64,000 nucleotides of DNA, from positions 434,001-498,000 of the forward strand of contig NAJO01000025.1 in assembly GCA_002077065.1 (NCBI GenBank), written 5' to 3'. Every line of letters begins with the position of its first letter. Within the stretch, counting starts at the first letter, position 1. The notes under the pieces were generated by a model. The model did not search any database, was not told the origin of the DNA, and worked only from the letters and a program-made list of their open reading frames with translations. Positions 47,172 through 55,195 of this stretch are shown piece by piece. Both the position numbers and the translations under genes were made by a program. Origin of the DNA: Cryoendolithus antarcticus (Eukaryota; Ascomycota; Dothideomycetes; Cladosporiales; Cladosporiaceae).

Positions 47172-48945
47172 CTACGGCCAAGCCTTGGATCCGTCTCCCT
47201 CTGCCTCATAGACATCCTTGCACCGCAGGCACGCGATCAAGAAGCACTTCTTACACTCGTAACTGAATCCCTTCCCTATCAAGTCGACCGGCTTGTGCTT
47301 CCTCCGTAGCGGTCTCGCCACATGACCAGCCTTGGTGAGTGCGTAAGGCTCGACGTGTGCCGTGCAGCGGTTGCACTCCATCAATTTCAGATCGCCATGA
47401 TAGTACCCATCAGGCTTCGGGTCGAACAGGGCAAAGTTGTGGATACAAGACCATACTTGAGTGTGGAGACTGTCATCGGGCTCTTCGCCGAAGTCCTCTT
47501 CTGCACCAGCCCAGCGACGTGCTCCGCCAGCATCGAGGTTACGTGTGAGTTGTGACAGGTTGCCAATGCCGTCAGGGGAGCCTTGTGGAGCTTGTGCGTT
47601 CTCGATGGCTGTAGTTGCCCCTTGTGTGGGTGTGTCCGCGGCATTCGCACTCGCGTTGGTAGCCGTCACTGCGCCAGCGAGAGGTATATTCGGACTCGCA
47701 AGTTCGTCTTCAGACTCATCAGAATCATCCTCTCCTTCATTACCACCCTCTTCAGAGGAATACTCGGCTTGCATCTCAGCACAGTCGCCATTGCAATCGC
47801 GAATGCTCTTCATGCAGTACCAGCAAAAGTGGGCACCGCAAATACATGCCATGTGTGAGCAGCCGTACATCTTCTTCAGGCCATGTTTGCATCTTGGACA
47901 TCGCTTGTAGCCGAATGACAGGAGCATTGCAGCTTCATGATCTTCCGCAGAGTTGTCGCAGTAGCCCGTGTGGGCAATCTGACGGCAGCGTGTGCAGATA
48001 GCGATGTGGCATGTAGGGCACGCGAAGAGCTGCTGCGTGGACTGAGCAACGTCGTGGACTGTATCGACAAGCTGATCGATGGAGTTCGCGACTTCTCGTT
48101 GTGCGATCGCCACGACGTCTTTGGCTGCCTGAGCGACTGGATGATCGGAGGACTTGTTGTATTTCACGGCGTTGGTTTTAATGAGCTTGACAGTCTCCAG
48201 GAATTGTCCAGCCTTGGTGTATCTAGCGATCAGTCAGTGACGGCAGACCTAATTCTCGGACAATGGAGTGGACGCACGTCGAAGCGTCCACTAGTCGCTG
48301 GATGGTATCAAGATCGGTCGGCATATGGATAATGTCGTTGTAGCCGGGGAGCGAGCTCTGCAGGCTGGCATCCCGGAAAAATCGTGAAGCAGGAGCTTCC
48401 CTCATCTTATCGAGCACCTGCCGAAGAATTTGTTGAAGTGACTTCGGCTTCGATGCTCCCACATGGCTTGGCACCACGGTCTCAGGGATGAAGACCGAGC
48501 ACGGCTTAGATGGACAGTATGTCTTGATGCGTGCGATCCACTCCGTCGACTTCATGCGATAAGCTGTGACGATCTCGGGCGCCAAGTGAGGCAGGACGGT
48601 GTGCAGCTGTAGCAGCGTGCAGCACTGAGGCGGCAATCGATCTTTGATATAGGCTGCTGCCGTAAACATCTCGATGAGGCATTTGCTGCAGTAGTCTGCA
48701 GGACATAACCGACATGGCTTGACCATGATAGGATCGCCCGGTGTGGTCTTTACGGTGTCACAGCACACCACGCACGTCCGAGCCGTCGCCTCTGTCGCCG
48801 TATCGACCTTGGGCTCGGTAGGTGGGACGACAGTGGGCACATCCTTCACTTCAGTCGGCTGCGCGGTCGCCACCGTGTCGGTAATGGTCCTTCGCAACAT
48901 GTTGAAAACGCGACGATATCCAGGAGCTGCAGTGTCATCATCCAT
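47172..48945 (-). CDS. RBR (RING-IBR-RING) ubiquitin ligase with a bromodomain-like insert in the IBR
   Basis: Exons 48945-48278 and 48222-47172 (intron GTGCGT, CACTGACTGATC, GCTAG) join in phase to 572 aa. RING1: C58/C61, C78, C81, C86, C89, then PPQCC at 105-109. IBR first pair: YCPSKPC (C144, C149); second part: FACPTCHIAICTRC...H307...C311. RING2: CPRCKHGLKK...YGCSHMACICGAHFCWYC with the expected catalytic Cys at about residue 344. Between C149 and C291 the usual short IBR loop is replaced by about 141 residues. About residues 168-265 of these read as a bromodomain: LQQILRQVLDKM, FF, LPGYNDIIHMPTDLDTIQ, FLETVKLIKTNAVKYNKSS, with Asn at the acetyl-lysine position (N245). An acidic linker and a C-terminal Cys-rich part (CNRC, CKKC, CLRC) follow. 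It is probably a nuclear or chromatin-linked E3. Confidence 0.85.
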
Positions 48946-49931
48946 TGCCAAAGGTCGTGATGAGGTTTATCATAGGACTGCGAGCATGATCACCCATAGA
49001 GATGGTATTTCGCTCGTTTGTGAGAAGTAGTCAGCCATGAGGGCTCACGACACTGTAAAGTGGCTGCCTGCGGGGACTACCGCATTGCAAGAGCAGCAGT
49101 GAAGTGAAGGAAGGTACGATCACTTGACCTCACCTCACATCTCACGTCGGCTAGGAAGAATCCATCATGCCCAGCATATCGTAGCGCGGGAACCAGCGTT
49201 TGCAGGTCTCATTCTTGATACCGGGTCACTCAGTGCTGTCTGCTCTGTGGCATAGCTAGCCGGCGTCTCACTGCGACAGCCATGGCGATAGTAGCGTACG
49301 GGTTGAGTTTCTTTCATGAAGCGGTGGCAGCAATTGACATTTTCCGCCTCTTGCAGTACGCCACAACATGAGCTGTTCCAATTTTGACCTGCTGCTCGCC
49401 ATATCGTAAAGCAACATCGCGATATCGTAAAGCAACACCGGTTTTCATCGATGATTGAAAGACGCGGTGCAGCGTCTATGACTGGCACGTTCATATGAGA
49501 CAGGAGGTAGAAAACGCACAGACTGTGCACAGCGCGTCGGCAATGGCACACTATGCCGTGTCGGGACGTAGATAAATTGGCTAGCAACATGCCAATCTAT
49601 CTCACCAAATGACCGCTGCGAGTGCTATTTCTTGGGGCGGCTGACGATCTGTTCCAACGCGGTTCGCCCAGTGTTTCCCAAGTCATCTCGATCGCCTTCA
49701 CATCTGTCGTGTACTAGATTCTTGTTCTCATTCGAGATAACCCATGCTACTGCATGTGTTCATGCATGCACTCCGCAATCCGGCGGCGTGGGTAACACGC
49801 TCCGACGAAAACCAATATCGCCATTCAAGATAGTGGTACACTAGGGACGATCCCAGCGATTGAAGCTCTCGATGCACTAGGAGCGCGAGCGCGATTGAAC
49901 TAGGAGAGCGAACACGACCAATTCAACCGCC
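48946..49931. other. Divergent intergenic region
   Basis: About 1 kb between the RBR gene and the TeaR-like gene. It contains a 21-bp tandem repeat (49401-49441) and no convincing gene. Confidence 0.5.
49401..49441. repeat. 21-bp tandem duplication
   Basis: The unit ATATCGTAAAGCAACATCGCG (49401-49421) is followed by a second copy that differs at its end (ATATCGTAAAGCAACACCGG). It is intergenic and looks like a local slippage duplication. Confidence 0.85.
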
Positions 49932-51575
49932 ATGGCAGTCGCGACCACCGCGCAATGGACCCATGCCGTTCAGCATTCAGACTTCAATGCCGATGACTTC
50001 AGCCCTGTCCAGGCATCAGAAGGCTTCGAAGACTACACTAGAAGCAACGGCAACGTACCCAAGCGCCGCCCCAGCGGCGCCAACATGCAAGGGGAGCGGG
50101 ATCCGCAACAGCGAAGACCTTCGGTGCAGTCAAATCAAGGGATCCCACCCCGCAAGCGCTCCACACATACTTTACGACAGGTCAAGGCTCCGGAAGAGGT
50201 TCGAGATGACTCGGCGTGGATACATCGCGACAAGTTGGCACAGATTGAGATACAGGAGATGGAGGACGCGGGAATGCATGTTCGACAGCCGAGGAGGTCA
50301 GGTAGTACTGGGCCTGGAGCTAATGGGAGATCGAGTCGGTCGGTCAGTCGGACTGGGCTAAGGAGGCCAGCAAGTAGAGATCAGGTGAACGAGGTGGGAG
50401 GTGCGGAGGAAGGAAGGGATGAGATGCGGAGGAAGAGGGTGTCGACTATACATGCTGCCGATGAGGAAGAGCACGAGCAGGGCTTCGATCCAACGATGGA
50501 TGCGGAGCTAAGAACGCCTGAAGAGGTGGCAGCGGAGCAGCAAATCTACCGTCAGCACATGCTTCGACCTAGTACGTCGAGGATCCCGATCTCGAAGCTC
50601 AGTCCGGTGCCGGTGCCTTCAACAGTGGTGGACCGCGAGTCGCCTTTGACGAGAAGCAGGAATGGGAGCGGTGCTTGGAGCAGTCAGTTTGACGAGCTAC
50701 AGTACGCCAGGAGGGCCCGGAGCGGAAGCAACGGCAGTCATGTCTTACTCGACGATGGAGATGGAGTGCGTACATCACCACGCCCAACGAGCTCACACAT
50801 GCGTCAGTCGAACGACTACAATACACCACATTCGCCGCCCAAGTCACGCATGCCGAACAAGGACACGCCAACTTCAGGTGCTCGCAAGGCTTCCATGAAT
50901 ACACACGTCACAGGTCGGCCACCTTCATCAGGTGGACCCAAGACCATCCGAACGAGCGGCCAGAGCATCCGCCCACTCTCGAGCTCGGGAAAGCCTCGTC
51001 CATCTACGAGCCACCAAAGACCCGAGGGCGATGCACCCTGGCTAGCGACCATGTACAAGCCAGACCCGCGTCTGCCGCCTGAAGAGCAGATGCTACCGAC
51101 TCACGCCAAGCGAATGATGCAAGAGCAGTGGGAGAAAGACGGCAAGACTGGCACAGCTTATGATCGGGACTTCAGGCTGCTAAATGACGAGCCGCTTGAC
51201 AGCCACAAACCCACTTCTAACACGCTGGACCCTCAACTGCAGACCTTTGACCAGCCTTCTCGGACTTCGCCACGTCCTCAGGTGCCGCCGAAGGAGAACA
51301 TTCCACCCGGCACACCTACTGGTAATGGCTGGCCGCTTGGCAGTCCCTCGAGCCCGGTTAAGAGCGAAGTTGGGAGTACACGGCCTGGCACTAGCGGTGG
51401 CTATCGCATTACACCTACGATCGCTACGCCACCGGTGATCAATCTGCCGAGCCCCAGGGGCAGCGCACTCGAGAACAAGCCCGTCAAGCATAATGCTACG
51501 CCAAGGATACCGGACTTTGATGTCGATGAGAAGAGTGGGAAGGAGAAGGGGTGCATGGGCTGCATCGTTATGTGA
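49932..51575 (+). CDS. teaR: TeaR-like CaaX protein (cell-end marker anchor)
   Basis: A single exon of 547 aa. Most of the chain is disordered, Ser/Pro/Arg-rich. Conserved blocks are visible: DDSAWIHRDKLAQIEIQEME (about residues 93-112), the FDPTMDAELRTPEEVAAEQQ block and APWLATMYKPDPRLPPEEQM with THAKRMMQEQWEKDGKTGTA and YDRDFRLLN. The C terminus is GCMGCIVM, a CaaX-type prenylation box with nearby Cys for palmitoylation. This order and the CaaX end match Aspergillus TeaR, the membrane receptor for the kelch protein TeaA that brings polarity factors to hyphal tips (identity from memory of the family). The gene model needs no intron. It is divergent from the RBR gene. Confidence 0.75.
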   Translation: MAVATTAQWTHAVQHSDFNADDFSPVQASEGFEDYTRSNGNVPKRRPSGANMQGERDPQQRRPSVQSNQGIPPRKRSTHTLRQVKAPEEVRDDSAWIHRDKLAQIEIQEMEDAGMHVRQPRRSGSTGPGANGRSSRSVSRTGLRRPASRDQVNEVGGAEEGRDEMRRKRVSTIHAADEEEHEQGFDPTMDAELRTPEEVAAEQQIYRQHMLRPSTSRIPISKLSPVPVPSTVVDRESPLTRSRNGSGAWSSQFDELQYARRARSGSNGSHVLLDDGDGVRTSPRPTSSHMRQSNDYNTPHSPPKSRMPNKDTPTSGARKASMNTHVTGRPPSSGGPKTIRTSGQSIRPLSSSGKPRPSTSHQRPEGDAPWLATMYKPDPRLPPEEQMLPTHAKRMMQEQWEKDGKTGTAYDRDFRLLNDEPLDSHKPTSNTLDPQLQTFDQPSRTSPRPQVPPKENIPPGTPTGNGWPLGSPSSPVKSEVGSTRPGTSGGYRITPTIATPPVINLPSPRGSALENKPVKHNATPRIPDFDVDEKSGKEKGCMGCIVM

Positions 51576-53118: not shown

Positions 53119-55195
53119 TCAAGCAAGCTCCCACACCCCTCCCCTACCCTTACCTTGCAGTCTCACAACCTGATAAGGCCGACTTCTCGGATCAAAATAC
53201 AGTCCCTCAACCTTCCCATCACTCCTCCTCAGACTGACATAGTAGAACCCACTGATCGTAAGCCCATGCCCTCGATCTCGATCCCCGAGCGCCTCGTCGG
53301 AGCAACTCGGTCCATCCCTAGGGTGAATGAAGTATCGCTCCTTCCAGCGCATGTGAATGTAGTCTCTACTGAGGGCATTGATTTTGCGGGGCGAGAGTAT
53401 GGTACGCGCCATTGCTTCAGACGGGCTGAAGGAGGTGTTCAATAGTGAGGGTGGAGTCCGAAAGGGAGGCAAGGCGAGCCAATTCTGGGCGTCCAAATTC
53501 GGCGTTGCGAAGGGGAAGGTCAGAGGATCTTTCGGAGGGAGAGTATATGGTGTTGAGTTGAATGCGTTTGTCGTTGTGGGCCCGCCGCGATACGAGCGGT
53601 GTTCATCTGGGGGCGGGGTGAGAAAGGAGTGCGCTCGATGGTCGAGAATGTGGCCCTCCATCAAGGTGGTAATGGGTGCGTGTTTCTTTCCTGCTCGAGG
53701 GCGGGCGTGCATGGAGGCATTCCGGGCTGCGAGCAGGGATGCTGGATGCTGCGGGACATCGTAGGCTTCCATTGTGCCTTGGAGGGTCATAGACTCCCAA
53801 TCGACTGAGTGCAACGTCACTCGTACAGGCCAGTGGTCGTGCGATGGATCTAGGAACTTTGTGGACATTTGGCGGAGGTTCGGCGCTGATGGAATCGTGT
53901 GGCTAAGCCATGGTCGGGAAGCGTCGAAGGGTAGAGGCTGATTTGATCGAGCAGTCGGGTCAGAGGTCGAGGAGTGGCGGTAATTCGGATTGATCTGCTC
54001 AACAGCTACATGCGTTGCGGATGGTGGTCGATGTGCGATCTCCATTGATGAGGTCGAAGCATGCTGATGCCCGTCGAATATCGCACCGGGCTGAAGCCAA
54101 TGTGAAGGCTCCAGAGGTTCGATGCTATTGATGTCGACCACAAAGTCGTCATGCTTATCTGCCCACCACTCTTTCGTTGCCAGATTATTGTCCACTGCAG
54201 CCTCCAGAGCCTCACCGTAAGTCTGACAGTCTCTCAGCCGGCTCAGATAAACCAGAGCATTCTCCAGCAGCGCGTGCTCGCTCTTCCCTTTGCCCCCTGT
54301 CGAGCTCGACACAACAGGTGTAGAGATCCTAGGCAATCGAGGAGGCAGATTCTCCGCCAGATACCCCCTCCGAAAAGCTGCAAAGTTCTCCTGCCTGACC
54401 TGTCCACTGCCCTCGTGCGTACTGAGCCCACTCCCCTCATATCCTCCAGGTGTAGGTCTCCACCACCCCGCGCCTCTAGCCCTCTCCTCCTCCTCGCTCA
54501 CCCCGCTCCGCTCCCGCTGCATGACATATCTCAGCATTCTCTCCGTTCTGCTGCCCTCCCCCTGCCCTAGCCCACTCTCCCCATTCCCTGACTCCCTCGC
54601 CACAACTCTTCTCCTCCGTTCCCTCGCCCGCTCCTCCATCAACCGCCTCTGCCACAGCCTTCTCTCGGCCGCATCCTGCTGCCCCTCCGTCATCTCATCC
54701 CCCGTCAGCTCTCTATACAGCTCCTCCTCCGCTCTCCTCATCTCGTGGTCCTCAGTGCTAGCGCCCGCAGCACCAGATAAGGGCACAGGCGCCCAGTCAT
54801 ATAGGCCTTGTCTATTCGGACTAGGCGTGCGATTGCCGTAAGCCGAGGGCGCGGAGGGCGGCTCGTGAGCGCGATTCAGGCGTGCGAGAACTCGCTGGAG
54901 ACGTTCACGGCGAGAGAGATCGGAGGGATGAGGCGGTGGGGGCGTGGAGGTGCGACGCGAGGAGGAGGGCATGGGGTATTGGTAGCGAGGATCGTGGGTC
55001 TGGGCCAGGGTATCTTGGGAAGTCCAGTACGGAGATGAAGATAGTGGAGGACTCTCTTGTGAATGGAAAGGGTAGGGGCTCGGTATGCGCTGCAAAGAAT
55101 GAGGGTTCAGTGAGGGCGCTTGCTGGGAGGAAGCAGTTGCGACTACATGTACTCACAGGTGGGGAGGTCGCTATTGGTGAGTTCACTGGCGGCAT
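53119..55195 (-). CDS. gid4: Vid24/Gid4-like substrate receptor of the GID/CTLH ubiquitin ligase
   Basis: Exon 1 is 55195-55157 (MPPVNSPIATSPP), the intron is 55156-55090 (GTGAGT, TCACTGAACC, TTTGCAG), and exon 2 is 55089-53119, giving 669 aa. Residues 15-330 are disordered and Arg/Glu-rich. The C-terminal Vid24 beta-barrel region is recognised by VRVTLHSVDWESMTLQGTME, ITTLMEGHILDHRAHSFLTP, then SRDYIHMRWKERYFI and GLTISGFYYVSLRRSDGKVE with GLYFDP. These are the conserved Gid4 strands (MRWKE.F and GFYY.....G...GxYF). Gid4 recruits proteins with N-terminal Pro degrons for ubiquitination. The protein is much longer than yeast Gid4 because of the N-terminal tail and an insert of about 85 residues before the MRWKE motif. 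It is convergent with rps12. Confidence 0.85.

What the first reader, a model, noticed from the sequence alone, without database searches (positions are those of the whole stretch)
47172..48945. A bromodomain-like segment sits inside the IBR zinc-binding domain of an RBR ubiquitin ligase
Seen: RING1, the first Cys pair of the IBR (YCPSKPC), then about 141 residues, then the rest of the IBR and RING2 with GCSHM and FCWYC. The extra segment has the bromodomain order: helix Z, the ZA loop with GYNDIIHMPTDLDTI, and helix B with NAVKYN including the acetyl-lysine Asn. A spliced intron falls inside it (between TDLDTIQRLVDAS and YTKAGQF), keeping phase. Established: RBR ligases form a thioester on the RING2 Cys; bromodomains read acetyl-lysine. 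Inference: a single-chain reader plus E3 that could ubiquitinate acetylated (chromatin) proteins, built by inserting the reader into a zinc ribbon loop. I do not know of a described RBR with this architecture.
Basis: partly seen in the sequence, partly recalled or inferred. Interest (0 to 1): 0.88.

Follow-up and report, generated by a model that had tools for sequence, protein, structure and literature searches.

The report
Ubiquitin ligase with nested bromodomain
A fungal gene encodes what looks like an enzyme that tags proteins with ubiquitin and carries, nested in one of its zinc-binding domains, a module of the kind that recognises acetylated proteins; the same build is found in many related fungi and may let the cell mark acetylated proteins directly.

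Summary
A minus-strand gene (48945-47172, one 55-nt intron) encodes 572 residues: RING1, the first IBR Cys pair (C144, C149), 141 extra residues, the rest of the IBR (C291-C311) and RING2 with catalytic-type C344. The extra stretch holds a bromodomain (Pfam E 2e-14; predicted fold) with Y202 and N245. It is a family trait: 70 of 111 relatives have a 110-175 residue insert there, 61 of them with both flanking IBR Cys readable; 36 have a 15-51 residue loop. Three carriers looked up are Dothideomycetes. A second copy in the same genome keeps the intron and shows purifying selection on the bromodomain (dN/dS 0.063, as in RING2). No description of the architecture appeared in the listings seen, which were partly capped. 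Best reading: a single-chain ligase steered by acetyl-lysine. Binding and ligase activity are untested, and 14 of 70 inserts lack the acetyl-lysine Asn, so a non-reading scaffold or allosteric role is the main rival.

The parts
47172..48945 (-). Whole coding region, 572 aa after splicing (exon 1 48945-48278, exon 2 48222-47172). P0001 in nr starts at the Met that lies at 48900 here
   Evidence: second copy in same genome alignable over both exons
48223..48277 (-). Intron, 55 nt, inside the bromodomain codons (between DAST and YTK), GT...CTGAC...AG
   Evidence: same splice in P0001
48619..48774 (-). RING1 (C58-C109)
   Evidence: ligand columns nearly invariant in relatives
48499..48516 (-). First Cys pair of the IBR (C144, C149)
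   Evidence: Cys in 97 of 98 and 100 of 100 relatives with a residue there
48021..48498 (-). Insert of 141 residues (150-290) in the IBR, intron included in the span
48120..48426 (-). Bromodomain, Pfam span residues 174-257, intron included in the span
   Evidence: E 2e-14; TAF1, BRD4; predicted fold, on P0001
48156..48158 (-). N245, acetyl-lysine Asn (N in 56 of 69 inserts with a residue there)
48340..48342 (-). Y202, ZA-loop Tyr of the pocket (Y in 54 of 69)
47958..48020 (-). Rest of the IBR (C291, C294, C299, C302, H307, C311)
   Evidence: in P0001 the best Pfam IBR stretch (profile 37-63 of 65) lies right after the insert, though no stretch passes on its own
47814..47900 (-). RING2 (C331-C359)
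   Evidence: (best PF01485 stretch 328-362)
47859..47861 (-). C344, position of the catalytic thioester Cys (GCSHM); Cys in 108 of 109 relatives with a residue there
   Evidence: catalytic role by position, established for RBR ligases
47220..47447 (-). C-terminal zinc-type module (C482, H484, C506, C509, C546, C549, C554, C557), no Pfam match

Best explanation
It is an RBR-type ubiquitin ligase whose IBR zinc domain hosts a complete bromodomain in the loop between its second and third zinc-binding residues. Shown: gene, insert site, bromodomain sequence and predicted fold, intact pocket residues in this species, conserved RBR zinc ligands and RING2 Cys, family-wide conservation, purifying selection. 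Inferred: RING1 receives E2~ubiquitin, passes ubiquitin to C344, and the bromodomain binds acetyl-lysine on a substrate (histone or other acetylated protein) so that this substrate is ubiquitinated; because the bromodomain springs from the zinc domain directly after the RING1-IBR linker helix, binding could also set the geometry of the ligase.
Against: No binding, ligase, localisation or expression data. The acetyl-lysine Asn is replaced or unaligned in 14 of 70 inserts while the RING2 Cys stays; Tyr and Asn are both intact in 51 of 70. The WPF shelf of ordinary readers (recalled) is RFF here. The insert is absent in the Cladosporium group and Hortaea, whose RBR parts persist. Two carriers (P0048, P0061) have lost C291-C302 of the IBR as well as the Asn. 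The window protein's IBR score passes the Pfam cut-off narrowly (24.6 against 24.3 bits) and its best stretch is RING2.
Confidence: 0.6

Rival explanations
1. The bromodomain is a scaffold or allosteric module that no longer depends on acetyl-lysine: it docks on a fixed partner or props the IBR, and pocket residues are partly relics.
Against: In this species and in 51 of 70 carriers the Tyr/Asn pair is intact.
Confidence: 0.27
2. The RBR part is only a zinc scaffold or a weak ligase and the protein works mainly as an acetyl-lysine adaptor.
For: The family's RING1 has a Cys where many RINGs have His (recalled); RING2 His346 is Phe in P0006 and Thr in P0064; P0048 and P0061 lack part of the IBR.
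Against: C344 is Cys in 108 of 109 and His346 His in 107 of 109; dN/dS of RING2 plus IBR-rest is 0.064.
Confidence: 0.08
3. Gene-model artefact: two neighbouring genes or a retained cassette read as one.
For: Short-loop relatives exist (36 of 106 scorable), so an exon-skipped form can be imagined; no RNA evidence was seen.
Against: In 61 relatives the insert lies between C149 and C291; deposited models join the parts; frame and intron are kept in the second copy; a scan for GTRNGT donors before and CTNAY branch points at the end of the insert found none in either copy.
Confidence: 0.03

Closest known systems
RBR ubiquitin ligases (RNF216, ARIH2, ARIH1/HHARI, parkin, HOIP)
   Same: RING1-IBR-RING2 order, zinc ligands, GCxH catalytic-type Cys; weak sequence matches of the short-loop relative P0064 (best RNF216 E 5.5e-5) and fold matches of P0065
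   Different: No bromodomain in the RBR entries named; a short IBR loop there (recalled)
Short-loop relatives (Pleosporales-type P0068, P0070; Cladosporium P0064; Hortaea P0058)
   Same: Same RBR, same C-terminal zinc-type module, contiguous IBR match in P0058 and P0064
   Different: 15-51 residue loop where the bromodomain sits
Bromodomains of TAF1, BRD4, Bdf1, Gcn5
   Same: Fold, ZA and BC loop residues
   Different: They sit in transcription and chromatin proteins, not inside a zinc domain of a ligase (recalled); RFF instead of WPF shelf
TRIM24/TRIM28/TRIM33 (RING with PHD-bromodomain)
   Same: Ligase plus bromodomain in one chain (recalled, not tested)
   Different: RING type without catalytic Cys, bromodomain at the C-terminus, animals (recalled)
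p300/CBP core (bromodomain-RING-PHD)
   Same: Bromodomain beside zinc modules (recalled); a p300 chain heads the Foldseek list of P0001
   Different: Acetyltransferase, not an RBR ligase (recalled)

Membership tests
RBR ubiquitin ligase | RING1, IBR and RING2 zinc ligands in order | tested here: met
   Pfam IBR 24.6 bits against cut-off 24.3 in the window protein, best stretch in RING2; 82 of 83 members at E 0.01
RBR ubiquitin ligase | Catalytic Cys in RING2 (GCxH) | tested here: met
   C344, H346; 108 of 109 and 107 of 109 relatives
RBR ubiquitin ligase | Fold like solved RBR ligases | tested here: inconclusive
   P0065 model matches RNF216, E 8e-4, with low TM-scores; the 50 rows shown for P0001 are filled by bromodomain entries
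RBR ubiquitin ligase | Thioester intermediate and ubiquitin transfer | not testable with these tools
   needs biochemistry
Bromodomain | Sequence match to the family model | tested here: met
   PF00439 E 2e-14, 53.8 bits
Bromodomain | Left-handed four-helix bundle | tested here: met
Bromodomain | Acetyl-lysine Asn and ZA-loop Tyr | tested here: met
   N245, Y202 in the window protein; Asn lacking in 14 of 70 inserts of relatives
Bromodomain | Binding of acetyl-lysine | not testable with these tools
   needs biochemistry

The most novel reading that the evidence does not exclude
An acetylation-gated RBR ligase: the bromodomain, nested in the zinc domain next to the RING1-IBR helix where other RBRs bind activating ubiquitin (recalled), turns acetyl-lysine binding into an allosteric switch for ubiquitin transfer, giving a one-chain acetyl-to-ubiquitin relay that arose once in Dothideomycetes and was later lost or blunted in several lineages.
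Probability: 0.27. Interest if true: 0.87.

Novelty: new variant of a known kind. Interest (0 to 1): 0.74.

Why it matters
Known links between acetylation and ubiquitination mostly need two proteins or an animal TRIM-type RING (recalled). Here a reader module sits inside the scaffold of a thioester-type ligase and is kept across much of a fungal class. It offers a natural test of whether a nested domain can gate an RBR, a comparison with short-loop relatives, a natural series of pocket losses, and a natural model for acetyl-directed ubiquitination.

Tried and rejected
Origin of the bromodomain: the family profile was run on 18 of the 24 bromodomain matches found in the own genome; Bdf1-like BD1 (68.6 bits) and Gcn5-like (68.3) score best, no clear winner (these two names are my reading of the sequences). 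A BRD8/Bdc1-like origin looked possible by eye, but that gene scores 18.9 bits, has no intron there, and joins the family only on a very long branch in a tree of 15 family and 14 genome bromodomains; left as unproven.

The search with the bromodomain region alone returned only P0001 and P0002 among 141 candidates; it could not settle origin. NCBIfam gave nothing useful. The profile search of solved structures showed only bromodomain proteins in the 60 of 435 rows listed, no RBR; the 50 rows listed of the P0001 Foldseek search likewise show no RBR ligase. One domain fills such lists, so this says nothing against the RBR part.

Exon-skipping of the bromodomain: no GTRNGT donor or CTNAY branch point at its borders in either copy; a consensus scan, not proof.

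Forcing all insert carriers into one clade is not rejected (p-AU 0.106), so secondary loss in the Cladosporium group and Hortaea is favoured by the tree but not firm. The Hortaea model (P0058) may be a prediction error; genomes of other fungi were not available. The single-gain reading also rests on where the root lies: five distant non-carriers with long branches could not be placed and were left out.

Recalled and not from a call: WPF shelf, details of parkin, HHARI and HOIP, TRIM and p300 architecture, Pleosporales membership of genera other than Dendryphion.

Full report
WHAT IS THERE. The minus strand holds one gene from 48945 to 47172. Of 23 frame-keeping GT...AG pairs one has fungal-type signals, 48277-48223, 55 nt. 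The product is 572 residues. The window lies in an unnamed 46,965,068-base assembly in 149 contigs. The nearest database protein found is B0A51_05840 of Rachicladosporium sp. CCFEE 5018 (P0001), 98% identical over 97%, with the same splice but a start at our Met16. The genome paper reports 47.4 Mb for R. antarcticum (PMC5502844, part 1 of 2 of the text read), so the window fits that group; the species is my inference. NCBI now lists that species as Cryoendolithus antarcticus, Cladosporiales.

THE TWO MODULES. RING1 spans C58-C109; the IBR opens with C144 and C149; then come 141 residues; the IBR resumes with C291, C294, C299, C302, H307, C311; RING2 runs C331-C359 with C344 and H346 at the catalytic positions. 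Pfam finds the bromodomain at 174-257 (E 2e-14); its IBR model passes narrowly (24.6 against 24.3 bits), best stretch in RING2. In P0001 the best IBR stretch (profile 37-63 of 65) lies right after the insert, though no stretch passes on its own. In the short-loop relatives P0058 and P0064 the IBR match is contiguous. So the insert splits one IBR; this rests on the Cys pattern and the relatives more than on the Pfam score.

FAMILY. Two searches gave 112 proteins. Without P0111 (it carries the TAF1-type domain PF12157 and no IBR match; dropped before counting) 111 relatives were scored: 70 have an insert of 110-175 residues (median 139), 36 a loop of 15-51 (median 34), 5 are fragments that could not be scored. 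Of the 70, 61 have both C149 and C291 (insert 129-175), seven have no residue at C149 because they start later, and two (P0048, P0061, Recurvomyces) lack C291, in fact C291-C302. RBR ligands are otherwise nearly invariant; C344 is Cys in 108 of 109 with a residue there (P0108 has Ser). By Pfam at E 0.01, 63 of 83 members have a bromodomain and 82 of 83 an IBR match. Named carriers include Friedmanniomyces, Elasticomyces, Neohortaea, Fulvia, Zasmidium, Pseudocercospora, Polychaeton, Aureobasidium, Delphinella and Cryomyces. Six lineages were looked up: carriers Neohortaea, Cryomyces, Aureobasidium and non-carriers Cladosporium, Hortaea, Dendryphion (Pleosporales); all are Dothideomycetes. Other named non-carriers are Alternaria, Bipolaris, Pyrenophora, Ophiobolus, Macroventuria, Ascochyta, Glarea and Exophiala.

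SELECTION. The same genome has a second copy on contig C77, 505 of 567 aligned codons giving the same residue as in the window, with aligned flanks and intron. Nei-Gojobori dN/dS: bromodomain core 0.063, IBR-rest plus RING2 0.064, RING1 0.154, C-terminal module 0.075, acidic linker 0.347, N-terminus 0.445, whole 0.154. The core departs from neutrality (p 3e-9), is lower than the rest of the protein at p 0.048, and not clearly lower than residues 57-149 (p 0.07). One pair of copies only.

POCKET. In the window protein Y202, Y244 and N245 are in place. Across inserts N245 is Asn in 56 of 69 with a residue there (14 of 70 lack it, counting P0065), Y202 is Tyr in 54 of 69, both together in 51 of 70; Y224 is Tyr in 70 of 70, L212 Leu in 69 of 70, R188 Arg in 69 of 70, H250 His in 66 of 69, P251 Pro in 67 of 69. 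The RING2 Cys is kept in all 14 that lack Asn. Hence acetyl-lysine reading is likely here but has probably been given up in several lineages, and conserved positions outside the Tyr/Asn pair (RFF, HP) hint at a second job.

MECHANISM. Established for RBR ligases: RING1 takes E2~ubiquitin, the RING2 Cys forms the thioester (passages of PMC8586995). Inferred: the bromodomain brings acetylated substrate to C344. Its place directly after the RING1-IBR helix (predicted helix 108-122 of P0001) would allow allosteric gating as well. Confidence for targeting or gating through acetyl-lysine is 0.6.

LITERATURE. Searches: 0 papers; 44, 25 listed; 80, 20 listed; 0; 3; 0; 1; 1; 1. I saw listings and abstract starts; beyond that, passages found in PMC4327156 ('bromo' 0 times in the main text) and PMC8586995 (bromodomain only for PCAF/GCN5), and a whole-word find in PMC9170682 ('RBR' 0 times in the main text). 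None of what I saw describes a bromodomain in an RBR ligase. The library lacks most subscription papers, and 19 of 44 papers and 60 of 80 were not listed. Databases already carry automatic names such as 'Bromo domain-containing protein' for some members, so the sequences are known but, as far as searched, not the architecture.

SURROUNDINGS. Of the 27 window frames of 230 aa or more 20 were scanned; 10 match Pfam families, all ordinary (dynactin p62, LMBR1, MAGE, Vac_ImportDeg, Stb3, arrestin, glyoxalase, transporter, DUF3818, CDH-cyt). No repeat or mobile-element search of the window was run.

Noticed in passing
47220-47447: Conserved C-terminal module with eight Cys/His (C.H...C..C...C..C...C..C), preceded by NLDAG and DFGEEP motifs, shared by carriers and non-carriers and without a Pfam match in the window protein.
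   Followed up: partly
G000: Many bromodomain and IBR matches come in pairs with the same or like scores on different contigs, so the 47 Mb genome looks doubled.
   Followed up: partly
P0048, P0061 (Recurvomyces): Carriers that have lost C291-C302 of the IBR and the acetyl-lysine Asn but keep the RING2 Cys; degeneration or model error.
   Followed up: no
L054 (G000:C84:749690-750200) and L055: BRD8/Bdc1-like gene (my reading) whose bromodomain has a long extra stretch between helices A and B, frame open without an intron.
   Followed up: partly
L045, L046, L049, L050 (G000:C61 and C70): Two places with two divergent bromodomain matches each, 2-3 kb apart; three of the four have Tyr where the acetyl-lysine Asn should be.
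   Followed up: no
49899-51575 +: Divergent neighbour frame of 558 aa, no Pfam match, ending in CIVM, which looks like a CaaX prenylation box.
   Followed up: no
53122-55152 -: Vac_ImportDeg (GID4-type) protein, itself a ligase substrate receptor family (recalled), about 4 kb away; probably coincidence.
   Followed up: no
P0056, P0060: Metagenome models starting close to our exon 2 border suggest that the intron position may be shared.
   Followed up: partly
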